Of a stretch of 45,437 nucleotides of DNA, positions 186-45,437 are shown one piece after another. A model generated the notes under the pieces. The model was given only the letters and a program-made list of their open reading frames with translations. It was not told the origin of the DNA and did no database searches. The position numbers were made by a program, and so were the translations under genes. Numbering within the stretch: position 1 is the stretch's first letter; the number at the start of each line of letters is the position of its first letter. The stretch comes from Eubacterium sp. (lineage in GTDB: Bacteria > Bacillota > Clostridia > Lachnospirales > Lachnospiraceae): NCBI GenBank assembly GCA_017477505.1, contig JAFUVQ010000045.1, forward strand, positions 1 to 45,437, read 5' to 3'.

Positions 186-3100
186 TTACCCATTAACTAT
201 ATACTGATATATATCCTCTCTCACCGGTGTGTCCAGCTTCCACTCTATCTCCACGGCAGTCTTATCAGTATTGGCCATAATGAATTCATTCGTATTGCCC
301 GTAGCTGTCATTCTGCCAAGATAATAGAACTCCTTGGAGATTTTATTATCTTTGTTCTTTCTCACGAAAAGTTCAACATCTATGCCGCGTTCCTTTGCAT
401 GAAGGAAGTTCTGTACATCTTCTGATTCAACTGTTCTGCTCTGCTTTGATATAGCAATGAGTGAGCTGCGGGATGTGAAATAATCTTCGTACTTTATGGT
501 ATCCTGGATGTCATCACTTTTATCATAGTTGATGAAGACAGGAAATGTCTTAGTAGTCTTATCATACTTATAACCACCGATATTGAGTGGTACTTCATTA
601 TGCTCCCAATTAAGAAGTCGACATGCATCCTCATAAGTATACTTTTGATACAGCACTAGCTCTGTATCCTGGTAGGTCTTTGAATAATCACGCTCGTATC
701 TGTATCTTCCGAATTCAAGAAGTTCTTTCACAATATCGTAGAACTCTTTGTTATGAATCATTTTCTGCAGAGGCTTGCTTATCTCGAAGTCACCATCCTG
801 GCTCTTCTCGATAAATATGCAGTCCTCGTAGGTCTTCTTTCCAGAACCGGATGGGAACTCATTTGTAAGTACATTTACAACACTCTTCACAACTTTGTCC
901 GGGCAGTCCTTGTTGTAATTCTCCTTCAACGAAGTCTTCATCCCCTTAACCAGCGCATCATTATAAATCAGCATGCGAGATAACATTTCCAGTTCATGTA
1001 TACGCTTTCCACTTACGAGCTTCTTGGAAATGAATTCGACTATCTTCTCTTCATTTGCAGAAAGCCTTACCTTATAATCCTTCTCATACTTCACAAGGAA
1101 CTTGTAGTATGAACCAAGGGAATTATTATCGAATATGCGAAGCACATCCATTTCGCCATATCTGTCGAAATCCATCAGGTTTGGAATGCGCCCCAGCTTG
1201 TATTTCAGATTCTTGTAGTTTTCTCTGATAAGCTTGATATCACTGAAGTTTGCCGTATCGATTGCAGCGTAAATCTTCTTCTTGGATATCTCATCAAAAT
1301 GAATTGTCGAGATTCCCGGAATAACCTTTTCACCCTCAGTAACATAGCGGCGAATGTTATCCTTATTGTAGGTTCTGTCGCCCGAAAGAGCAATCGGAAT
1401 CATAAAGTTATTCTTATAGTTAGCAATGAAATCCAGAATAACTACGAAGTCCTTATCATCAGCCTTTCTGAGACCACGACCAAGCTGCTGGACAAATACA
1501 ATCGGCGACTCTGTCGGACGGAGCATAACAACCTGATTCACCTCAGGAATATCAACACCCTCATTGAATATATCCACAGTGAAAATGTAATCGAGATAAT
1601 CCCCATGCTTTGTTCCATCTATATCAACCTGAATATCCTTTGTCAGAAGTTCTATCGCAGCTTCTCTTTCTTCCTGACTGTCTGCACCTGTGAGAGCCTT
1701 TGTCTTATATCCCCTATCATTAAATATACCACTTAGAGTTTCTGCTTCCTTCCTGGAACTACAGAAGACAAGCCCCTTAACTCTGTCACCTGAGTAACCA
1801 TAGAAGTTCATTTGCTGAGTGATATAATCCACTCTCTTGTCAGATACAAGGAACCTGAAGTTTTCCATTTCAGTTTTCTCATCGATTACTACACCGTCTA
1901 ATTCCATATCTGTTATACCGAAGTAATGGAATGGACAGAGGAGATTTTCCTCCATAGCCTGCTGGAGTCTAATCTCAAGAGCAATATTGTGATCAAATGT
2001 CGCGAATACATCAAAGTCATCTGTACGTTCAGGAGATGCAGTCATACCAAGCCAGAACTCCGGCTCAAAATAATCCATAATCTTCTGATAGCTTGAAGCT
2101 CCTGTTCTATGGGCTTCATCTATTACGATAGTTTTAAAACAGTCCTTCGGAAACTGATTCATCACTTCTTCCTTTGACATCATTTGCATAGTTGCAAAGA
2201 GGATATCTGCATCAGTATCCTTACTGTTGCCGGAAAGAAGGCCATATTTCTTACTTCGACCAAATACATTTTTATATGACTTCATCGCCTGCTTTGCAAT
2301 CTGCTCACGGTGGACAATGAAAAGAATGCGGTTAGATTCCGTAGAATTATCCTTGAAACCACTCTTCACATTACCATCATTATCACCCATAGCATCACGG
2401 AGTCCGAAGGCAGATGCGTACGTTTTGCCCGTCCCGGTTGCAGATATAAGTAGTGCTTTATTTTCCCCCTGCTCTCTTATCTTTTTTAGATTATTTATAA
2501 AATCCACCTGCATTGAATTTGGTGAGAGTCTATATTGTTCCAGTGAAACAACAGGACTTGCCTCAGCAGCGAGTTTTCTCTGTTTCTTTATCGTCTGATA
2601 TTTAGTTCTATATTCTTCAATGAAATCCTCATACTTACTTGTATGATTCTTATCATCCCACAGCGCATCAAAAGCAGACTGGATGTTCTTATACATTTCA
2701 CCTTCAGCAGTTGATACCATTTTTGTATTCCACTCTTTATTTACAGAAAGAGCTTTGCCGGTCATGTTGGAACTACCTATGATGAATGTATAGGTCTCGT
2801 CACGCTTAAAGATATAGCCTTTTGTATGGAATCCGATTCTTTCAGTGTCAGGTGTTGGAGTTGTCCCATCTTCTAAAACTGCACTCTCACCACCTGTATA
2901 TTCTCCATCGGATATTCCTGATAGCACTGCATCCTCATGGTACATACGAAGCTCTATATTCCTAAACGCTGCAAGCTTATCGAGAGCTTTAGGGTCGGTG
3001 AACATGTTGTAGTCTGTTGTAAGGACCTTTCCTGAAACACCTCGCTCTTCCAACTCTTTAAATGTAAGCAACAGAGGTTCTATTCCTCCAAGCGTTATAA

Positions 3101-3281
3101 AAGCAACACTAAAAGTAAAGGAGTCACATCTCTTTAGTTCTTCCTCTATAGATGTGAGTACCTTCACTCCCTTTGTATGATCATTTGATATAAAATCCGG
3201 TTTATATGCGGCACTGGATTTATTGGTTGAATCAATAAATGCAGTGGTTGAACCGGATATGATTTTTTCTTTATAATTCAT
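186..3281 (-). CDS. PLD-nuclease/DEAH superfamily II helicase with DUF3427-like C-terminus
   Basis: A 1031-aa protein combining a phospholipase-D-type nuclease module with an SF2 helicase. The N-terminal ~240 residues are PLD-like, with one HxK motif (HTK, about 152-154) and GSSN downstream; a single half-motif implies dimerisation for catalysis. The helicase follows: Walker A SATGTGKT (about 280-287), DEAH (388-391), TASP (about 414) and QLGRGLRK (about 599-606). The C-terminus ends in YYLGRMTA-type sequence typical of DUF3427. I chose the ATG at 3281, not 3299, because GAAAGG lies 6 nt before it while the outer ATG has no ribosome binding site. It sits 112 bp after the AlbA_2 gene with no terminator between, so the two are probably cotranscribed. 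Proteins of this build are often found in defence islands; that role is inferred here. Two broken copies lie nearby. Confidence 0.9.
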   Translation of the reverse strand: MNYKEKIISGSTTAFIDSTNKSSAAYKPDFISNDHTKGVKVLTSIEEELKRCDSFTFSVAFITLGGIEPLLLTFKELEERGVSGKVLTTDYNMFTDPKALDKLAAFRNIELRMYHEDAVLSGISDGEYTGGESAVLEDGTTPTPDTERIGFHTKGYIFKRDETYTFIIGSSNMTGKALSVNKEWNTKMVSTAEGEMYKNIQSAFDALWDDKNHTSKYEDFIEEYRTKYQTIKKQRKLAAEASPVVSLEQYRLSPNSMQVDFINNLKKIREQGENKALLISATGTGKTYASAFGLRDAMGDNDGNVKSGFKDNSTESNRILFIVHREQIAKQAMKSYKNVFGRSKKYGLLSGNSKDTDADILFATMQMMSKEEVMNQFPKDCFKTIVIDEAHRTGASSYQKIMDYFEPEFWLGMTASPERTDDFDVFATFDHNIALEIRLQQAMEENLLCPFHYFGITDMELDGVVIDEKTEMENFRFLVSDKRVDYITQQMNFYGYSGDRVKGLVFCSSRKEAETLSGIFNDRGYKTKALTGADSQEEREAAIELLTKDIQVDIDGTKHGDYLDYIFTVDIFNEGVDIPEVNQVVMLRPTESPIVFVQQLGRGLRKADDKDFVVILDFIANYKNNFMIPIALSGDRTYNKDNIRRYVTEGEKVIPGISTIHFDEISKKKIYAAIDTANFSDIKLIRENYKNLKYKLGRIPNLMDFDRYGEMDVLRIFDNNSLGSYYKFLVKYEKDYKVRLSANEEKIVEFISKKLVSGKRIHELEMLSRMLIYNDALVKGMKTSLKENYNKDCPDKVVKSVVNVLTNEFPSGSGKKTYEDCIFIEKSQDGDFEISKPLQKMIHNKEFYDIVKELLEFGRYRYERDYSKTYQDTELVLYQKYTYEDACRLLNWEHNEVPLNIGGYKYDKTTKTFPVFINYDKSDDIQDTIKYEDYFTSRSSLIAISKQSRTVESEDVQNFLHAKERGIDVELFVRKNKDNKISKEFYYLGRMTATGNTNEFIMANTDKTAVEIEWKLDTPVREDIYQYIVNG

Positions 3282-3393
3282 TTTTAGCCTTTCAATCATC
3301 TAACTATATAGATAATATCTTTTAAACTCTATCTTTTAATTTATAACTGAACTCATCCAAGTCTCAAATGCTATAGCCTCGTTATTCTTCCGT

Positions 3394-5101: not shown

Positions 5102-5197
5102 TTAAAAATCAAAAAAACGCTTTTTTGAAAAAGGACAAAGTCTGGGAGTGCCCTATTTATAAGATCTCCGCGACTTTGTCCCTATTATGACATATTA
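5102..5197. repeat. ~97-bp repeat, copy A, abutting a truncated helicase
   Basis: Nearly identical to 9159-9255 (six substitutions and a 1-nt indel by eye). It contains two inverted repeats: TCAAAAAA/TTTTTTGA around a short ACGC loop, and GGACAAAGTC (5133-5142) with GACTTTGTCC (5172-5181). The element starts exactly after the GCAACTGGG of the helicase Walker A codons and supplies the TAA stop. Hairpins near both ends and no visible target duplication suggest a small non-autonomous mobile element, but no transposase or known family is recognised. Confidence 0.75.
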
Positions 5198-6007
5198 CCC
5201 AGTTGCTGAGACCAGGAGTGCTTTAGTCTCACCACGCTCTATCAGAGCCCTTAAATTATTGATAAAGCCCACCTGCATTGAGTTTGGAGCCAATTTATAC
5301 TGTTCAAAAGATACAACTTGACCGTTTTTCTCGCCACCGTTATATGTCATATCAGGGACAAGGTTTTGAAGAGCTATCTTCTTCTGCCTCTTGATAGTTT
5401 CATATCTTATACGATATTCGTCTATAAATTCATCATAAGACTTTGTATGATTCATATCACTCCAAAGCTTGTTAAACTCTGCAGTGATATTCTTATACAT
5501 TTCACCCTCTTCGGTAGAAACAAGTTTTGTATTCCATTCTTTGTTAACAGCCAGAGCTCTATCGGTCATATTTGCACTGCCGATAATAAATGTATAAGTC
5601 TCGTCTTTTTTGAAGATATATCCTTTTGTATGAAATCCTATATTTTCTCCGCCCTGCACCTGATACATTCTAAGTTCTATATTTTTGAAGCCAGCAAGCT
5701 TATCAAGTGCCTTCGGATCTGTGAAACTATTGTAGTCAGTTGTCAAGATTCGTCCCGGAATCCCTTTTCTTTCTAACTCCTGAAGTGTCTGAAGCATTGG
5801 CGTAATGCCTCCAAGAGTTATGAAAGCAACACTAAAAGTAAAGGAGTCACATCTTCGAAGCTCATCTTCTATTGATGTAAGCACCTTTACTCCATTTGTA
5901 TGATCGTTTGATATAAATTCCGGTTTATAGGCAGAACTGGATTTATTTGTAGAATCGATGAATGCAGTCGTTGCACCGGATTTGATTTTTTCGATATGAC
6001 TGTTCAT
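5195..6007 (-). pseudogene. Truncated PLD/helicase paralogue (N-terminal part only)
   Basis: An open frame of 270 aa from the ATG at 6007 (a TTG at 6013 is also possible; GAGG lies upstream of both). It aligns end to end with the first ~285 residues of the intact helicase, sharing blocks such as TTAFIDSTNKSS, FTFSVAFITLGGI and GFHTKGYIFK. It lacks the ~20-residue insertion before the HTK motif. The reading stops right after SATG of Walker A, where the ~97-bp repeat begins, so the whole helicase part is missing. The PLD module is intact, so a stand-alone nuclease-like product cannot be excluded, but a decaying duplicate is the simpler reading. Confidence 0.8.
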
Positions 6008-6077
6008 ATACAAGATTTCCTCGTCCGTTTTTTCATATGTTTACAATATACCACATATTCAATCATCACAAAAGAAA

Positions 6078-6117: not shown

Positions 6118-6660
6118 TTAAAACCAATGCTTCGCATATTCTTTTAAGAATGAATCTACAACTTCATAGAACACATGTTTATCAACTGAGTCTCCACCTA
6201 AATCACATTTATATGTAATATACTCTTCCATATCACGATTATTCCATGATATTTCTACTCTATCATCTGCAGCCTGGAAATATACATCTGCCAGAATGCC
6301 ACCCGATGAAGCTGGATGCCATCTATGTCTTAAACACCACTCATCAAGGGTATCATAAATTCTATCAAATTCTTCATCATCATCTGAATCGAACTCTCTA
6401 GCATTATCATCTTTTTCAGAAGCATACCGTCCTTCTACTTCGACAGGATAAGGATCATCATTCATATTATCAACAAATGTTCTTAGCCACTCTGCAATTT
6501 CGTCAAGATTCCAGCATGTAGTGCAAGTTTCACCATTTCTATCAAATTCTAGAATGTTCTCGCCATTAACATACATAGCGAGCTCTGTATAACGCTCATC
6601 ATCTATGAAATCGTATTCTATTGCGAAGCTATTCTTATCGCCGATACATGTTTTTTCCAT
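6118..6660 (-). CDS. Acidic protein of unknown function, immunity-like
   Basis: A 180-aa, strongly acidic, cytoplasmic-looking protein with no signal peptide or membrane segment. It has a D/E-rich stretch (about residues 90-105) and ends in an aromatic-rich segment (YAKHWF). I do not recognise the family. Its size and acidity, and its place last in a three-gene set with a CPCC protein, recall orphan immunity proteins of polymorphic toxin systems; that is inference. The ATG at 6660 is chosen because GGCGGAAAG precedes it; the upstream in-frame start is a TTG at 6714 without a ribosome binding site. The gap to the CPCC gene is 44 bp and the set shares the terminator at 6078-6103. Confidence 0.7.
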   Translation of the reverse strand: MEKTCIGDKNSFAIEYDFIDDERYTELAMYVNGENILEFDRNGETCTTCWNLDEIAEWLRTFVDNMNDDPYPVEVEGRYASEKDDNAREFDSDDDEEFDRIYDTLDEWCLRHRWHPASSGGILADVYFQAADDRVEISWNNRDMEEYITYKCDLGGDSVDKHVFYEVVDSFLKEYAKHWF

Positions 6661-6704
6661 AAACTTTCCGCCTACTCTATTATATGATTGATTATAGCTA
6701 TAAC

Positions 6705-6929
6705 TTATTGGCAATTATTAACCCATTTATAGCTTGGATTCATCTTTCGCTTATTCATAAAGTCCTGCCTGTGTTCAGATAAAGATAATTTATTTGCTCC
6801 ACCACTAAAGCCTTCATCATCATTTTGGACTTCATCATCTTCCCAACCACAAATCAGACAAATGTCATGTAATGATTCTATTTTACCTTCGCCACAACAA
6901 GGACAACTGTAAGGATATTTATTTACCAT
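6705..6929 (-). CDS. CPCC-type cysteine-rich small protein
   Basis: A 74-aa protein with CPCCGEG near the N-terminus (YPYSCPCC) and CLICGWEDDEVQ about 15 residues later. The four main cysteines suggest a zinc-ribbon-like fold. The pattern matches the cysteine-rich CPCC domain found in many small bacterial proteins near toxin-immunity loci; biochemical function is unknown. The start at 6929 gives an 11-bp overlap with the upstream gene, typical of translational coupling. An alternative ATG at 6944 would add five residues. Confidence 0.75.
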   Translation of the reverse strand: MVNKYPYSCPCCGEGKIESLHDICLICGWEDDEVQNDDEGFSGGANKLSLSEHRQDFMNKRKMNPSYKWVNNCQ

Positions 6930-7242
6930 GCTTTCTTCTAACATTTTCCCAATACACCTCCCCATTCTCTGGAATAAAATATGTAATAATCACGCCGTTT
7001 TTTGAAACTATCACAAATTCATAAGTTTCATAGCTAAACTTATAGGTACTTCCATTTTTATCAACAAAACTGTCATGCGTAATATTGTTCACGTCATTTG
7101 CAAACAAGATAGCCATTTCTTCATAAATGGGATATTCCTCCCCATCCGTGAAGTGAGCCCCCTCAATCAAAAATGCTTTAAAAGTATCTTCCACTTTTTT
7201 TCGTTTTTGTTTTGGAGGCGTAACAAAATACAGTTGGCTCAT
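6919..7242 (-). CDS. Small protein of unknown function
   Basis: A 107-aa protein starting MSQLYFVTPPKQKRKK and ending in basic ENVRRKHGK. It is beta-rich and hydrophobic in the middle (YEFVIVSKNGVIITYF) but has no clear membrane helix or signal peptide. No family recognised. A strong GGAGG lies 8 nt before the ATG. It is first in the three-gene minus-strand set and overlaps the CPCC gene. Transcription must start in the 7243-7394 intergenic, which also holds a strong promoter on the opposite strand. Confidence 0.65.
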   Translation of the reverse strand: MSQLYFVTPPKQKRKKVEDTFKAFLIEGAHFTDGEEYPIYEEMAILFANDVNNITHDSFVDKNGSTYKFSYETYEFVIVSKNGVIITYFIPENGEVYWENVRRKHGK

Positions 7243-7269
7243 TATTTCGCCCTCCGATAAAATATTTTT

Positions 7270-7298
7270 TTGACATTTTCACCGAAGGTTCCTATAAT
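7270..7298 (+). promoter_or_regulatory. Perfect consensus sigma-70/A promoter
   Basis: TTGACA (7270-7275), exactly 17 bp, TATAAT (7293-7298) on the plus strand, with T-rich sequence before it. It points away from the minus-strand genes and no open reading frame follows, only the short RNA below. CCGAAGGTTCC (7282-7292) in the spacer is nearly the reverse complement of GGAACTTTCGG (7321-7331), so the -10 lies inside an imperfect inverted repeat. Confidence 0.9.
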
Positions 7299-7304
7299 AG
7301 AAAA

Positions 7305-7382
7305 TACCACTTTTCGAAAGGGAACTTTCGGAGAACAACATCTTGTCAGTTATTGCAGTAATTGACAGGATGTTTTTTATTT
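7305..7382 (+). ncRNA. Predicted ~77-nt small RNA, unknown family
   Basis: The promoter at 7270-7298 would start transcription near 7305. Hairpin 1 is CGAAAG-GGAA-CTTTCG (7315-7330), a 6-bp stem with a GNRA tetraloop. After six to seven unpaired bases, hairpin 2 pairs 7337-7352 (AACATCTTGTCAGTTA) with 7359-7374, 16 continuous pairs including two G-U, around loop TTGCAG. It ends in TTTTATTT (7375-7382), a strong intrinsic terminator. The T-run is only on the plus strand, so this is not the terminator of the minus-strand PIN gene. No ribosome binding site or ORF is present. Target unknown; it lies between an immunity-like gene set and an XRE/PIN pair. Confidence 0.75.
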
Positions 7383-7394
7383 AAAACAATCAAT

Positions 7395-7904
7395 TTAACC
7401 ACGACCTTTCGCTTCTAACATCTTTATTCTCTGTTTTAGTTCATCTTCAGGAAGTCTTCTTTCTTTATGTTCCAAAAATCCTCTGAAACATTTAAGTCCT
7501 TCTTCCTCAGAGATTATATTATTCTTAATCATTTCATCTACCAATCCTATACTTCCCAACACATTAACGCCTTCTTTTTGAGCAGCACTTCGTAGAGGTT
7601 TATCTCCTGTTAAAAGAGGAATTTTTCTATGCTTTGCGATAGATAATGCTATCCGATCATATTTTGAAAGTTTAGGGTATTTGCTTTCCAACATCGGAAC
7701 ATAATAATACTTATCAAAGGACATTTCGGTTTTTTGAAGACCATACTCCAATAATAAATCACATAATTCTGGTGGTGATATTACTTCCTTATCAACAGTT
7801 TCATAATGCATCAAATATACAAACTCCAATTTGAACGGAAGATTTAATCTATCTATCACATAAAAATCTAGCCAGATATTGGTATCGCTACTTATATATT
7901 TCAT
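7395..7904 (-). CDS. PIN-domain ribonuclease-like protein, toxin candidate
   Basis: A 169-aa protein with the acidic pattern of PIN nucleases: D7 (SSDTNIW), E46 (PPELCDLL), D83 (KYDRIALSIAKHRKIP) and D101 (LLTGDKPL). PIN proteins are metal-dependent RNases and often the toxin of VapBC-like pairs. The ATG overlaps the stop of the XRE-ImmA gene by 4 bp (ATGA), with GGAGG 7 nt upstream, so the two are translationally coupled. The ~50 residues after the PIN core are charged and helical. Toxicity is inferred from family and context. Confidence 0.8.
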   Translation of the reverse strand: MKYISSDTNIWLDFYVIDRLNLPFKLEFVYLMHYETVDKEVISPPELCDLLLEYGLQKTEMSFDKYYYVPMLESKYPKLSKYDRIALSIAKHRKIPLLTGDKPLRSAAQKEGVNVLGSIGLVDEMIKNNIISEEEGLKCFRGFLEHKERRLPEDELKQRIKMLEAKGRG

Positions 7905-8950
7905 CCTGATACCTCCATCTTGTCGTAATACCGTTGAACTTCCGAAACAGATTGATTCAATAATTCTGCTGCTTTTTGAATATTAATTTCTTCAACATAT
8001 ATAGCCCGAAGAACTAACTGTTTTAACAATAACGGTGTTTCTTCCTTATTAACCCTTGAAGGCTCTTTATCTTTGTATTTTACTTTATTTGCATCAATAT
8101 AGAATCTTTGCTCAACTCCTGAAGAAATAATTCCAGCCTGAGCAGCACGTTTTACAAGCAGATATAACGATATACCATATTCATTACATACCATTTCAAA
8201 ATCATGAGTAATTCTAGTTCTTTTAAGACCTAATTCTCGAACAATATCTTCATTTGAAATAAGAAATGAACCTGCTATTGCCGTTGCCTCCTTTTCATTT
8301 CTTGATTCATCCGTTGAATCAGACCAATCAAACATAAAATGTGCAAGTTCATGAATTATTGTAGTTCTTTTACGTTCAGGTCTCATATTCTTATTTATAA
8401 CTATATAAGGATATCCATTTACAGTTCCATTCATACCCGAAAACGAGTCATTATCAATATCTATCTCAAGAACAAGAATCCCTTTATTTTCAAGCATGCA
8501 TATTATTTCTTCTATAGGTCCATCTTTTTGGAGACTCAAATAATTACGTAATTCTCTAGCATCCTTATCATAATCCCCACCTCTTGTTAATTTATGAGTT
8601 TCTATTGGCTTAGGTAAAGGTTCTCCACCTAAAATCTCAACAGTATCAAAAAATCTACTGAAATACTCTTCTACAGACTCTCTGATAAATTCCTGTTCAG
8701 CTTTAGATAATGAAGATTTCTTTCGAAATTCAAAATGTTCAAACTGCAATTGATCATTTCTAGTTTGGAGGAAATCTATAGTTTTCACTCCAAGTGCTGA
8801 TGCTAGTTTTTTTACAGTTTCCATATCCGGCTTTCTTTTACCACTCTCATAATTTGTAATGGCCATAGGTGTCACATCGCAAGCATCGGCTAAATCTTTT
8901 TTGGTCATTTTCCTCTTTAATCTATAATACTTTAAATTCTTCTCAAACAT
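7901..8950 (-). CDS. XRE-family HTH and ImmA/IrrE metallopeptidase fusion
   Basis: A 349-aa protein. Residues 5-60 are an XRE helix-turn-helix (KKDLADACDVTPMAITNYESGKRKP). Residues ~130-290 are an M78 ImmA/IrrE peptidase with HELAH (200-204) as zinc site and E221 (NEKEATAIAG) as likely third ligand. A C-terminal helical tail follows. Members bind their own promoters and can cleave repressor or antitoxin proteins. AAAGGAGG lies 8 nt before the ATG. It is coupled to the PIN gene: a toxin-antitoxin-like pair in which the HTH part may repress and the peptidase may sense or relieve. Inverted repeats overlap its promoter. Confidence 0.88.
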   Translation of the reverse strand: MFEKNLKYYRLKRKMTKKDLADACDVTPMAITNYESGKRKPDMETVKKLASALGVKTIDFLQTRNDQLQFEHFEFRKKSSLSKAEQEFIRESVEEYFSRFFDTVEILGGEPLPKPIETHKLTRGGDYDKDARELRNYLSLQKDGPIEEIICMLENKGILVLEIDIDNDSFSGMNGTVNGYPYIVINKNMRPERKRTTIIHELAHFMFDWSDSTDESRNEKEATAIAGSFLISNEDIVRELGLKRTRITHDFEMVCNEYGISLYLLVKRAAQAGIISSGVEQRFYIDANKVKYKDKEPSRVNKEETPLLLKQLVLRAIYVEEINIQKAAELLNQSVSEVQRYYDKMEVSG

Positions 8951-9158: not shown

Positions 9159-9255
9159 TTATAAATCAAAAAATACGCTTTTTTGAAAAAGGACAAAGTC
9201 TGGGAACACCCTATTTATAAGGTCTCCGTGACTTTGTCCCTATTATGACATATTA
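9159..9255. repeat. ~97-bp repeat, copy B, abutting the chimeric remnant
   Basis: Second copy of the element at 5102-5197, in the same orientation. It keeps both inverted repeats, including GGACAAAGTC/GACTTTGTCC. It again follows the Walker A codons (here GCAACCGGG) and supplies TAA. The bases just before the junction match the intact helicase rather than the truncated copy. Confidence 0.75.
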
Positions 9256-9545
9256 CCCGGTTGCAGATATATCCTTTTGTATGGAAACCGATTCTTTCTG
9301 TATCAGGTGTCGAACCTGTTCCATCTTCTAAGACTGAACTACCTTCACCTATAACTTCTGAACTAGATAATACTGCATCCTCATGATACATACGAAGCTC
9401 GATATTCTTAAAGTCTGCAATCTTATCCAGAGCCTTAGGATCAGTGAACATGTTGTAATCCGTTATGAGGATTCCACCCTTCCTTGAATTCAATTCTTGC
9501 CCACTCAGCGATATTGTCATTAAGTAATTTCTCTATTGTAGATCT
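9256..9545 (-). pseudogene. Chimeric remnant of an AlbA_2-helicase unit
   Basis: Three pieces can be read. 9468-9540 matches the 5' end of the AlbA_2 gene (4801-4873) over 73 nt with one mismatch. Next comes a helicase PLD segment (LITDYNMFTDPKALDKIADF to GFHTKGYI), which has the VLEDGT...TPDTERIG insertion of the intact copy. It then jumps to the Walker A codons (TATATCTGCAACCGGG). The last jump shares TATATCT with both parent sites (about 2810 and 2442 in the intact gene), pointing to a ~368-bp microhomology deletion. The first join occurs at AGGATTC-like sequence. No functional product is expected. Confidence 0.85.
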
Positions 9546-9555
9546 GGCAGACTTT

Positions 9556-10344
9556 CTATACCCCATTCATCATAGTATAGAAAATCCCGTTTAATTGATT
9601 GAAATCTTTTTTCCTGTCATCTGAAATCCTATCAGATATTTCTTTTTGTTTTGGAAGCTCTGTTTTAATATACTCAATAATCTCCGGTATATGTTCGTTC
9701 AGCTCCCCTTCTACTGTGACTGCCTTCCTCTCCAGCAGACTGTCAATTGCCTGTAGCAATGTTTCATTCAGATCACTTTCAGTTCCATCAAAAAGCTTTA
9801 ACAAATCCTCAAACTTCATAGGTGGAATGCTATGATACCTTTCAATCCATCTGCAGCAGAGAAGGGGTCTTAGCGCATATAAATACTTTTTATATTTTAC
9901 TTTGTCGTCTTTCAGGAATCCATTATATGTACTATTTGCAGTTCCGTAATAATGACATAAAGCAGCCTTTTCTGAGAAGAATAGTCTTACCACTTTATTT
10001 ATCTTTTTCCACTCCTCAGTTTCTCTATACACTATTGGAGAATTCGCCCATTCCATAAGATTGGGATTTCCTTTACCAAAAGCAAGAAGAGCCTTCCTCA
10101 GATCCCATCCGTTTATATCCAGCACCTCATCAAGCTGCCACTCTATTACATCTTTTCCCTGATCGATTCTGAGATATTCTTCCTTTTTCTGCAAATATAT
10201 AAAACGCACATCATAATCGCTGTCTGGCGATGCAAAGCCCCACGCACGGCTTCCCGACTCAATGGCATACAGTATTTTCACATCATACTTAGACTCGATT
10301 GCACCTATGTTTTCCTGTATTTCTTTTTCTATATTTCTTTCCAT
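9556..10344 (-). CDS. RlaP-like nucleotidyltransferase
   Basis: A 262-aa protein with the polymerase-beta-type nucleotidyltransferase motif GS (31-32)...D43-Y-D45 (GSRAWGF then SDYDVRF). Later blocks (ELDEV-like region, KGNPNLMEWANSP, ALRPLLCCRWI) match the RlaP/YcgL family (COG3541). These enzymes are presumed to transfer a nucleotide to RNA or another acceptor, and some relatives occur with RNA-repair genes. The substrate here is unknown. It lies 64 bp after a second member of the same family, and the pair may form an operon. AAGGGA precedes the ATG. Confidence 0.82.
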   Translation of the reverse strand: MERNIEKEIQENIGAIESKYDVKILYAIESGSRAWGFASPDSDYDVRFIYLQKKEEYLRIDQGKDVIEWQLDEVLDINGWDLRKALLAFGKGNPNLMEWANSPIVYRETEEWKKINKVVRLFFSEKAALCHYYGTANSTYNGFLKDDKVKYKKYLYALRPLLCCRWIERYHSIPPMKFEDLLKLFDGTESDLNETLLQAIDSLLERKAVTVEGELNEHIPEIIEYIKTELPKQKEISDRISDDRKKDFNQLNGIFYTMMNGV

Positions 10345-37071: not shown

Positions 37072-37100
37072 ATTATATTTTATCAAATGTAATTTGTCAA
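37072..37100 (-). promoter_or_regulatory. Promoter with embedded OhrR-like operator
   Basis: Minus-strand TTGACA (37095-37100), 17-bp spacer, TATAAT (37072-37077). The spacer contains the palindrome CAAATTACATTTG (37084-37096), whose arm touches the -35. AT-rich palindromes of this kind are bound by OhrR proteins; binding here is inferred from the ohrR gene in the operon. Confidence 0.85.
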
Positions 37101-43435: not shown

Positions 43436-45437
43436 CTATTCTATAAACGCTTTATAGAATCTTGCACAGAAAGCTGCACACTGTCCTCTTGTTGAGGTAC
43501 CGTTAGGTTTCATCTTTGTAGAAGATACCCCTGATAGAATTCCATTATCTACTGCCCACTGAAGATCATTGACAGCACCGCTTCTAACTTCGTTATAATC
43601 CGAATATGTACTGATGCTTGTTCCTCCAGATATATATTTATCTTCACAATTCTGATAATCACCGAACTTCTTAAGCATTATCGCTATCTGTGAACGGCTT
43701 ATGTTATTATTTGGCTTGAACTGTCCGTTAGCAAATCCGGAGATGATTCCCTTTGAGCTCGCCCATACTACCTCAGCATATCCGGCTGTTCCGGAGGAAA
43801 CATCTGAGTAGCTGCTCTTATTCAGGTCAGCCGCTGTAATCGCAGGACTACCTGCCATCTTATATATCATAATAGCAAACTGTGCACGTGTTACATTCTG
43901 ATCAGGTTTTACCTTTACTTGTCCATTTTCATCAGGCGCTGAGAATCCATTTATAATACCCTTATCATAAGCATAACGTATTTCCGGAGCTAAACGATCA
44001 CTTACATCAACATCCTTGAACGGCCATACATCTTTCTTAACGGTACTGATAATAGTTCCTTTGCTCATACCGCTTGCTCTAAGATATCCTTTTGATGCTT
44101 TTCTTGCAAATACAGTATATACCGTCTTTGGACTAAGATTTGTAAATGTGTTTTCATTCTGCCATGTAATACCGTCAAGTGAGTACTGACATCCGTCCAT
44201 ATTTAATACGCTGATGCTTGTTGCCGTCACCTCATCTTCAACAGGAGCAGGCGGAACGTCATACTTTCCATATACCTCAACTGTGAAACTAGTTTCCGAC
44301 ATTTCATCATTTAACATATAATTGATAACTGCTTTTCCCGCTCCCAATGCATTAAGGTTACCTGCATCATCTATCTCTACAATACTTCCGCTGGTTCCCG
44401 GTGCAACCGGCTTACCATCAATACCAAGTACATCTGATATAACCCATTCAAAGCTTTCGCCTTCAAGAAGGTCTCTGCTGAAAGTAACGCTGACTGGTGA
44501 GCTGTCGCCAATCTGCATCTCATTTTTGATACCATTTATACTTTCAATTGAGAGAGGCAGAGTCGGATCTTCCGAACCTATAGGAGGTATTACCTCATAT
44601 TTCTTCTCTTTACATACGTCACAAGTATAAATCTTTATACCACTTTCTTCTTCTGTTGCCTCTTTGACAATCTCTCCGTCATCCCATTTATGCCCCTTTG
44701 CCGGAATAACTTCACCGGCCTCTAAAGTTTCACCGCATCTATGGCATTTTGTGTACTGAGTAAAACCATCGCTTACGCATGTAGCAGGAACTTCCTTTAC
44801 TACAACTTCATCATGACCATAAGCCTTAACAACTTCCTGCTCTGTAAGTATTTCTTCACATCTTGAACAATGAACTCCGGCAGTTAATCCGGTTTCTGTA
44901 CAAGTTGGCTCAACTGCCTCATCTATTACTTCAATATGTCCAAGAGCTTCCTCTGTTTCTGTATACTCGTCACCGCACTTACTGCATTTATATGTTGTGC
45001 TTCCTTCCTCGGTGCATGTAGCATCTACAGAATCAATCACCTCATAGTCATGCTCGCATCTGGTTTTATACCTTACCTCTGTTGACTTAGCTGTTGAATC
45101 CTTTGTATCAACCCAATCAGAAACCTTTGTATATCTGTACTGTTCTACTTTTACTCTGTCCTGATATACATTCCATCTGTACCATGCCTGGCATCTTTCA
45201 CCATGACTGCCATATGAACCATCACAAGTTACACCTGATTTACAATAAACCCTAGCACCACTGTCAGCCCAGTTGAGCAGATAATACGGATGACTTCCAT
45301 CCATACCTGTTGATGCTATTCTTACTCCATATCTGCTGTCATCTATTTCATCATAATGGACAAATTTTCCTGTCTGCTCATAGTTACCTTCATTGCCTGC
45401 ATTCGGACCACAGAAATGATAATAAATATGCTTTACA
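43436..45437 (-). CDS. SLH-anchored surface protein with Cys repeats (5' end outside window)
   Basis: The frame is open to the right end of the window, so the N-terminus is missing; an internal ATG at 45304 is not the likely start. About 667 residues are visible. An aromatic-rich region (YYLLNWADSGARVYC, WYRWNVYQDRVKVEQYRYTKVS) comes first. Four to five cysteine repeats with paired CxxC motifs (YKCSKCGDEYTE, GVHCSRCEEI, YTKCHRCGE, YTCDVCKEK) follow, then an Ig-like domain, a fibronectin-like domain, and three SLH repeats (VTRAQFAIMIYKMAG to QCAAFCARFYKAFIE). Everything from the Cys repeats on closely matches the end of its neighbour, showing a shared module or duplication. Attached to the wall through SLH; ligand unknown. 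Confidence 0.9.
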   Translation of the reverse strand, partial: VKHIYYHFCGPNAGNEGNYEQTGKFVHYDEIDDSRYGVRIASTGMDGSHPYYLLNWADSGARVYCKSGVTCDGSYGSHGERCQAWYRWNVYQDRVKVEQYRYTKVSDWVDTKDSTAKSTEVRYKTRCEHDYEVIDSVDATCTEEGSTTYKCSKCGDEYTETEEALGHIEVIDEAVEPTCTETGLTAGVHCSRCEEILTEQEVVKAYGHDEVVVKEVPATCVSDGFTQYTKCHRCGETLEAGEVIPAKGHKWDDGEIVKEATEEESGIKIYTCDVCKEKKYEVIPPIGSEDPTLPLSIESINGIKNEMQIGDSSPVSVTFSRDLLEGESFEWVISDVLGIDGKPVAPGTSGSIVEIDDAGNLNALGAGKAVINYMLNDEMSETSFTVEVYGKYDVPPAPVEDEVTATSISVLNMDGCQYSLDGITWQNENTFTNLSPKTVYTVFARKASKGYLRASGMSKGTIISTVKKDVWPFKDVDVSDRLAPEIRYAYDKGIINGFSAPDENGQVKVKPDQNVTRAQFAIMIYKMAGSPAITAADLNKSSYSDVSSGTAGYAEVVWASSKGIISGFANGQFKPNNNISRSQIAIMLKKFGDYQNCEDKYISGGTSISTYSDYNEVRSGAVNDLQWAVDNGILSGVSSTKMKPNGTSTRGQCAAFCARFYKAFIE

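What the first reader, a model, noticed from the sequence alone, without database searches (positions are those of the whole stretch)
7270..7382. Orphan ~77-nt structured RNA from a perfect consensus promoter
An exact TTGACA-N17-TATAAT promoter drives no ORF. It drives a short RNA with a GGAA-capped hairpin and a 16-bp terminator hairpin, reading against the minus-strand genes and ending 13 bp before the end of the PIN gene. A strong constitutive sRNA between an immunity-like cluster and an XRE/PIN pair suggests an RNA antitoxin, a regulator of one of the two modules, or an island-encoded sRNA. The hexaloop TTGCAG and the single-stranded GAGAAC linker are natural pairing candidates.
Basis: partly seen in the sequence, partly recalled or inferred. 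Interest (0 to 1): 0.75.

Follow-up and report, generated by a model that had tools for sequence, protein, structure and literature searches.

The report
Antisense RNA guarding a toxin operon
A short RNA made from a strong promoter belongs to a family of small RNAs, absent from the RNA library searched, that appear to keep a gene of unknown function and the toxin-like gene behind it untranslated by closing the messenger's ribosome site; in this genome the guarded gene has since been mostly deleted.

Summary
In detail: an exact TTGACA-N17-TATAAT promoter (7270-7298, +) precedes a ~77-nt RNA with two strong hairpins (z -7.1) and no Rfam match. XRE/PIN is not the general partner: the RNA recurs divergently from DUF4417 (PF14386) genes with or without PIN, with variable toxin-like genes behind. 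In the window that gene is an in-frame remnant (6919-7242, -). The RNA lies antisense to the stretch between PIN and this gene. On that strand the complement of the sRNA promoter spacer can pair with the DUF4417 ribosome-binding site (anti-SD), and the complement of hairpin 1 with the anti-SD. Barring the sRNA-covered stretch from pairing raises the predicted cost of opening the RBS in 14 of 14 loci (2.5-10.0 kcal/mol; shuffles about -0.3) and in 5 of 6 short-gap hold-out loci. In 12 of 13 long-gap loci a second copy of the hairpin sequence lies before the gene; barring that copy does the same in 12 of 12 (9 significant). Its differences from the sRNA favour changes that keep G-U pairs (17 against 3). 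Direct sRNA-RBS pairing and an XRE operator are not supported. Best reading: an antisense RNA that shuts DUF4417/toxin translation through an anti-SD switch. No expression data.

The parts
7270..7298 (+). sigma70-type promoter of the sRNA, TTGACA-N17-TATAAT
   Evidence: promoter-like hexamers at similar spacing in relatives
7282..7292 (+). X, CCGAAGGTTCC in the promoter spacer; its complement on the minus strand is part of the anti-SD element
7305..7381 (+). predicted sRNA (about 77 nt, start site inferred)
   Evidence: no transcript data
7311..7334 (+). hairpin 1, 10 bp, GGAA loop
7321..7331 (+). X', inverted repeat of X (10 of 11 bases), loop plus 3' arm of hairpin 1
   Evidence: own X pairs own hairpin region better than other loci's
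7337..7380 (+). intrinsic terminator hairpin, 16-17 bp, and T-run
7346..7393 (-). possible leader ORF (TTG start, MIVLNKKHPVNYCNN) with a worn SD; SD and start well formed in 12 of 22 sRNA loci, start kept with worn SD in the window and L012
   Evidence: judged by eye from its table
7273..7288 (-). anti-SD strand, pairs with 7251-7265 (-)
   Evidence: minimum-energy structure
7251..7265 (-). ribosome-binding site stretch (GGAGGG) of the controlled gene
6919..7242 (-). controlled gene: in-frame fusion of a DUF4417 N-terminus (residues 2-45) to the tail of the next, toxin-like gene (residues 40-107)
   Evidence: E 1e-10; 69% identity, E 5e-35
7395..7904 (-). PIN-like protein upstream in the same direction
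7901..8950 (-). XRE plus ImmA/IrrE peptidase, RmrA-like
6118..6965 (-). downstream genes of the same strand: Cys_rich_CPCC protein (6705-6965) and a 198-aa protein without Pfam match (6118-6714); minus-strand terminator-like site at 6103-6078

Best explanation
The element is an antisense RNA gene for the leader of a DUF4417-toxin operon. Transcription from the upstream XRE-ImmA/PIN genes (or, in long-gap loci, perhaps from a promoter inside the gap) makes a leader with three mutually pairing parts: an SD mimic (complement of hairpin 1), an anti-SD (complement of the sRNA's own promoter spacer and -10), and the DUF4417 SD/start. Left alone, mimic and anti-SD can pair and the RBS is easier to open. 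The sRNA pairs with the mimic, either by full overlap in cis or through a second 25-35-nt copy in the gap, so the anti-SD falls on the RBS and translation of DUF4417, and by coupling the toxin-like gene, stops. Shown by sequence: the family, the gene partner, the three-part complementarity, and that the pairings are specific to their own locus. Inferred: that the RNAs are expressed, that read-through happens, the direction of control, toxicity. In the window organism the switch survives but its target gene is a fusion remnant.
For: Partner: Pfam finds DUF4417 in 7 of 7 intact neighbour genes tested (one, L017, lacks the sRNA) and nothing in the window remnant. Promoter plus terminator divergent from DUF4417: strict scan 8 of 51 loci, 3 of 1020 shuffles, 0 of 51 opposite strands; looser scan 13 of 51 and 14 of 49 new loci, 12 of 980 shuffles of the new ones, opposite strands 2 of 51 and 2 of 49; by eye 15 of 51. 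Switch: barring the sRNA-covered leader raises RBS opening energy in 14 of 14 loci, window 8.7 to 15.0 kcal/mol, null means -0.56 to 0.11, p 0.012 (floor) in 11 and 0.025-0.049 in 3, Fisher over 11 independent loci 7e-11. Own anti-SD pairs own RBS better than other loci's anti-SDs do (15 groups, p 2.6e-4), own X own hairpin 1 likewise (8.9e-5), direct sRNA-RBS pairing not (0.66). Putting in other loci's RBS lowers the mean effect in 14 of 14 (11 groups, p 0.0025). Hold-out: 5 of 6 short-gap loci rise (p<=0.033, Fisher over 6 7.6e-5); of 7 new long-gap loci with the second copy, 7 rise when it is barred (Fisher 7.0e-5); barring the sRNA region alone changes the cost by under 1 kcal/mol in 9 of 12 second-copy loci, an internal control. 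Copy differences keep G-U pairs on the mRNA strand, 17 against 3 transitions (p 0.0013), 7 transversions.
Against: No transcript or protein data. L197 goes the other way (-2.6 kcal/mol). With other assumed transcript ends the 14 short-leader loci still rise but some only by 0.3-3 kcal/mol, L105 falls (11.5 to 8.7) and L117 barely moves (10.4 to 10.6). Three of 12 second-copy effects are not significant (L163 0.082, L157 0.180, L194 0.164). Part of the first set was found through X-X' or judged by eye with it in view, so one search is partly selected; (RBS row), 85 and 104 are cleaner. RBS swap is not decisive in single loci: in L102 7 of 13 foreign RBS do as well, and the bound-state cost itself is matched by foreign RBS in L107 (11 of 13) and L127 (8 of 12). 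The RBS's best leader partner is significant in 13 of 19 loci and lies outside the expected stretch in 4 (window, L019, L107, L117). L097 has the sRNA but no DUF4417-like ORF behind it by eye. Most DUF4417 loci read lack the sRNA. L014 and L012 have ambiguous gene starts. The recurrent terminator loop is not explained by the switch itself. In the window the anti-SD already pairs the RBS in the free minimum-energy fold, so the sRNA would only deepen an off state.
Confidence: 0.72

Rival explanations
1. X and X' are DNA operator sites for the XRE protein (or another repressor) and the RNA is incidental.
For: X sits between -35 and -10 and X' just after the start site, an operator-like layout; XRE genes are adjacent. 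In L038 and L105 X matches the locus's own xre promoter better than any other X does.
Against: That holds in only 2 of 13 loci; in L104, L108 and L016 1 to 3 of 12 foreign X do as well, in the other 8 loci 8 or more do. X, X' and RBS match each other locus by locus. Differences between copies keep pairing on the mRNA strand.
Confidence: 0.08
2. The RNA is an antitoxin or substrate for the PIN protein.
For: Found beside PIN in 9 of 57 PIN loci printed, in the window and in L097; PIN proteins often cut RNA (recalled).
Against: Same RNA architecture beside DUF4417 with no PIN gene next to it; 48 of those 57 PIN loci do not show the RNA.
Confidence: 0.04
3. The RNA works in trans as a protein-bound RNA, for instance bound by DUF4417 through the recurrent terminator loop, with the leader pairing a by-product.
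For: A terminator loop like UUGC-G/U-CCAACAA recurs in otherwise unlike RNAs, by eye; DUF4417 function is unknown.
Against: Locus-specific pairing with the leader and RBS is left unexplained. In the mRNA the same loop reads UUGG, like a known kissing-loop motif, so it also fits the antisense reading.
Confidence: 0.1
4. The promoter and terminator only hinder read-through by convergent transcription; sequence details are neutral.
For: The sRNA is convergent with XRE/PIN, and no minus-strand terminator-like site lies between PIN and 7242.
Against: Neutral sequence would not keep the X-X'-RBS matches nor second copies at 87.5-100% identity over 25-35 nt.
Confidence: 0.06

Closest known systems
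hok/mok/sok and ldr/rdl type I toxin-antitoxin loci (PMC8167048, passages read)
   Same: Small antisense RNA against the leader of a toxin message; a short leader ORF whose translation is coupled to the toxin gene
   Different: Small membrane toxins there (recalled); here a ~220-aa DUF4417 gene and a variable toxin-like gene next to XRE-ImmA; the sRNA promoter is itself the anti-SD complement
aapA/IsoA of Helicobacter pylori (PMC6733600, passages read)
   Same: 80-nt antisense RNA; anti-SD hairpins that close the RBS
   Different: IsoA lies opposite the toxin ORF; the passages mention no SD mimic paired by the antisense RNA and no second target copy
I-complex plasmid antisense RNA control of rep translation (PMC10724649, passages and reference titles)
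   Same: Antisense stem-loop that inhibits translation; target loop with a UUGGCG motif (a reference title); leader and pseudoknot details recalled
   Different: Controls a replication gene; no CGCCAA partner seen by eye near the DUF4417 start; controlled protein unrelated
RosmerTA (PMC10440598, passages read)
   Same: XRE-ImmA protein like RmrA next to a PIN-like protein; that paper reports PIN-like partners of the ImmA node
   Different: No RNA part in the passages read; the RNA here goes with the following operon

Membership tests
Type I toxin-antitoxin system | Antisense RNA complementary to the toxin message leader | tested here: met
   By position if read-through from the upstream genes occurs (assumed), and by 25-35-nt copies in 12 of 13 long-gap loci
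Type I toxin-antitoxin system | RNA represses translation | tested here: inconclusive
   Predicted by folding only
Type I toxin-antitoxin system | Product of the controlled gene is toxic, usually a small membrane peptide (recalled) | not testable with these tools
   DUF4417 is ~220 aa with weak barrel-like fold matches; second gene has an LHH nuclease domain in 1 of 10 tested
RosmerTA | XRE/ImmA antitoxin RmrA | tested here: met
   14 RmrA models match, best 5.9e-42; Peptidase_M78
RosmerTA | Adjacent toxin neutralised by RmrA | not testable with these tools
   PIN-like neighbour, weak Pfam match
I-complex pseudoknot antisense control | Loop of the target pairs with a complementary stretch before the controlled start (recalled) | tested here: inconclusive
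   No such partner seen in the gaps read by eye; no systematic scan
Any Rfam family | Covariance-model match at gathering score | tested here: not met
   Window and 10 of the fetched loci (only a tRNA elsewhere in L028); weak sub-threshold matches only (best PyrR, 25 bits against 54)
Polymorphic toxin cassette | Conserved N-terminus with exchangeable C-terminal domain | tested here: met
   L104 and L105: DUF4417 90% identical, next proteins share 16 residues MGAGNHGGFGATKGSR and then differ
Polymorphic toxin cassette | Toxic domain with cognate immunity protein | not testable with these tools
   LHH nuclease domain in L102 only; immunity role of the next genes is a guess from position

The most novel reading that the evidence does not exclude
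A family of antisense RNA switches, spread over Lachnospiraceae and other Firmicutes, forms an RNA safety catch on DUF4417 toxin cassettes that are wired behind phage-sensing XRE-ImmA genes: when the sensor operon fires, read-through removes or outnumbers the sRNA and the cassette is translated, a type I-like RNA layer stacked on a type II-like defence operon.
Probability: 0.3. Interest if true: 0.8.

Novelty: new variant of a known kind. Interest (0 to 1): 0.62.

Why it matters
It gives a first handle on DUF4417, which only 3 papers in the searched library of 5.39 million mention. It shows a compact design in which an antisense promoter doubles as the complement of an anti-SD, so promoter, RNA and target must co-evolve. 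It also links RNA control to XRE-ImmA operons of the kind read as phage defence. The steps are testable with a reporter fusion.

Tried and rejected
XRE/PIN antitoxin RNA: dropped once the same RNA was found beside DUF4417 without PIN. XRE operator: X is the best match to its own xre promoter in only 2 of 13 loci. Direct sRNA-RBS pairing: no better than other loci's. Known RNA family: none at gathering score. Phage or plasmid copies of the element: one 21-base match in one phage (two records), none in plasmids, none for an exact 29-base pattern in viral contigs; three viral PIN relatives show no RNA. The third CCGAAGGTTCC in the window (29660) lies inside a long ORF. The G019 match is partial. 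DUF4417 function from structure: AlphaFold pLDDT 77.7, Foldseek best E 7.4e-3 to aldolase-like barrels, too weak; PHROG matches of unknown function or 'nuclease'. PDB sequence search with the PIN profile: nothing. Papers: RosmerTA plus small RNA, 4 listed; polymorphic toxin plus antisense RNA plus leader peptide, none; polymorphic toxin plus antisense RNA plus translation, 8 listed; only listings seen, none of the titles or abstract starts describes this. For DUF4417, passages of 2 of the 3 papers were read.

Rows dropped: one search kept the best 80 of 102 relatives; one search printed 57 of the 83 loci. One search used 51 of 52 DUF4417 places (fragment L124 left out). Searches used 68 new places, leaving out places already seen (G000, two of G015, G266) and three short fragments (G077:C28, G385:C90, G069:C22); 19 of 68 had no usable start. 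The promoter threshold was looser than that; its controls were run afterwards. One search used a misplaced structure string; one search replaces it. One search timed out with no output and was re-run smaller.

Full report
What is there. The promoter is exact and the RNA looks real by the sequence tests run: TTGACA-N17-TATAAT at 7270-7298, two hairpins with z -7.1, no Rfam family. One copy in its own genome. In the genus it is found in full in the window and G028 (identical) and nearly in full in G015 (85%), 3 of 61 genomes, plus a 47-base partial in G019. In G015 the genes on the far side differ while XRE/PIN stay, which first suggested XRE/PIN as partner.

Changing partner. A scan of 84,980 species for PIN relatives gave 102, the best 80 kept. 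Reading the stretch behind PIN in 57 loci, 3 of them viral, showed the same layout in unlike sequence in 9: L011, L012, L013, L014, L016, L019, L021, L028 and L038 (by eye); L097 came later. A scan drew out a second regularity: the promoter spacer (X) is repeated inverted in hairpin 1 (X') although X differs between loci. A DNA search in a Butyrivibrio-like genus then found the RNA in G811 with no PIN, divergent from a DUF4417 gene. The gene behind the sRNA is DUF4417 in L012, L014, L016, L019, L028 and L100 and in L013 (alignment with L016). In the window the 107-aa gene is a fusion of a DUF4417 N-terminus and the tail of the following gene; in the near-identical L011 only a short stub is left (by eye).

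Survey of DUF4417. Two genera gave 52 places; 51 were read. Fifteen carry the divergent RNA by eye. A strict promoter-plus-terminator scan finds 8 of 51 against 3 of 1020 shuffles and 0 of 51 opposite strands; the looser one finds 13 of 51, opposite strand 2. Several of the rest have a divergent HTH-like ORF in its place (by eye). Upstream of the RNA, in the sense direction, 6 of 11 loci listed with an sRNA have an XRE-like ORF followed by a second gene, L123 has one long XRE protein, and L101, L109, L128 (the L100 locus, an ATPase-like ORF) and L142 differ. Pfam finds the ImmA/IrrE peptidase in 6 of 8 such genes tested (L102, L104, L105, L107, L108, L123; not L117, L109) and an HTH in the 2 first genes tested. 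Behind DUF4417 comes a gene with a constant start and a variable rest: L104 and L105 have DUF4417 90% identical but their next proteins part after 16 residues. One of ten such proteins has a recognised domain, the LHH nuclease. I read this as a polymorphic toxin-like cassette.

The switch. Twenty-two sRNA cores were collected; 19 have a controlled gene start in reach. On the mRNA strand X reads as an anti-SD and X' as an SD mimic. In the window the anti-SD strand 7273-7288 pairs with 7251-7265, covering GGAGGG. The strongest partner of the RBS in its leader lies in the promoter spacer or in the gap before the gene in 15 of 19 loci, and elsewhere in the window, L019, L107 and L117; it beats shuffles at p<=0.05 in 13 of 19. 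When the stretch covered by the sRNA is barred from pairing, opening the RBS costs more in 14 of 14 loci. Pairings are specific: own anti-SD with own RBS (p 2.6e-4) and own X with own hairpin (8.9e-5), but not sRNA with RBS (0.66). Replacing the RBS by others lowers the mean effect in 14 of 14, though in L102 half of the foreign RBS do as well.

Hold-out. DUF4417 was searched in 397 family genomes, 53 positive; 40 more stretches were fetched; 68 loci were used, 49 had a usable start, and 14 carried the RNA by promoter and terminator alone, from 13 genomes of 13 genera; the same scan hits 12 of 980 shuffles and 2 of 49 opposite strands. Six with gaps under 100: five rise by 3.8 to 9.4 kcal/mol with p 0.016-0.033, L197 falls by 2.6. 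L165 (gap 122, no second copy found) rises by 10.9. Seven with longer gaps, and five such loci from the first set, carry a second copy of the hairpin sequence, scores 17.5-26.5 against shuffle maxima of 9-13; barring it raises the cost in 12 of 12, with p<=0.033 in 9. Barring only the sRNA stretch changes 9 of 12 by under 1 kcal/mol and raises L194, L192 and L108 by 5.0-6.1. The copies differ from the sRNA complement by 17 changes that keep a G-U pair on the mRNA strand, 3 transitions that do not, and 7 transversions (p 0.0013 for 17 against 3). This fits RNA pairing on that strand, with the sRNA or within the mRNA's own hairpin, and does not fit a DNA site.

Leader. A well-formed SD and start lies just before the sRNA-antisense stretch in 12 of 22 loci; the window and L012 keep the start with a worn SD; the other 8 do not show it (judged by eye). 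Sense-strand terminator-like sites between leader and gene were found in 3 of 33 loci (L123, L127, L142), so read-through is plausible in most.

Known relatives. The logic is that of type I toxin-antitoxin loci and plasmid antisense control. The recurrent sRNA loop UUGC-G/U-CCAACAA gives UUGG in the mRNA; UUGGCG is the target loop motif named in a ColIb-P9 reference title. What differs is the target, the three-part switch with the sRNA promoter as anti-SD complement, the trans copy in long-gap loci, and the setting behind XRE-ImmA genes.

Limits. All mechanism evidence is from sequence and folding. Transcript ends are assumed, with other ends, gives smaller rises for some loci, a fall for L105 and almost none for L117. 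The first set was partly chosen with X-X' in view. In the window the controlled gene is a remnant, so here the RNA may be a relic.

Noticed in passing
window 186-3299, 5195-6013, 9215-9520 (-): A PLD-helicase (DUF3427; PADLOC mREase_IV) and two shorter ORFs that share N-terminal stretches with it, on both sides of the sRNA region; possibly recombination or decay of a repeated restriction gene.
   Followed up: no
L017 6107-6166: Perfect 23-base inverted repeat (TGATATGCTACCCCCAAGTAGGA and its complement) in a locus that has DUF4417 but no sRNA.
   Followed up: no
L144 and L151, upstream of weak DUF4417 matches: GCGCCAACA loop motif present but stems and promoter unclear; may be worn or diverged sRNAs.
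   Followed up: no
window 37072-37100 (-) and 43569-43599 (+): Two further exact TTGACA/TATAAT pairs.
   Followed up: no
DUF4417 loci without sRNA (for example L116, L118, L140, L141, L149): A divergent HTH-like ORF (by eye) sits where the sRNA would be, as if protein and RNA regulators replace each other.
   Followed up: partly
window 9556-10344 (-): RlaP family (RNA repair pathway polymerase-beta-like) protein beyond the XRE/PIN genes.
   Followed up: no
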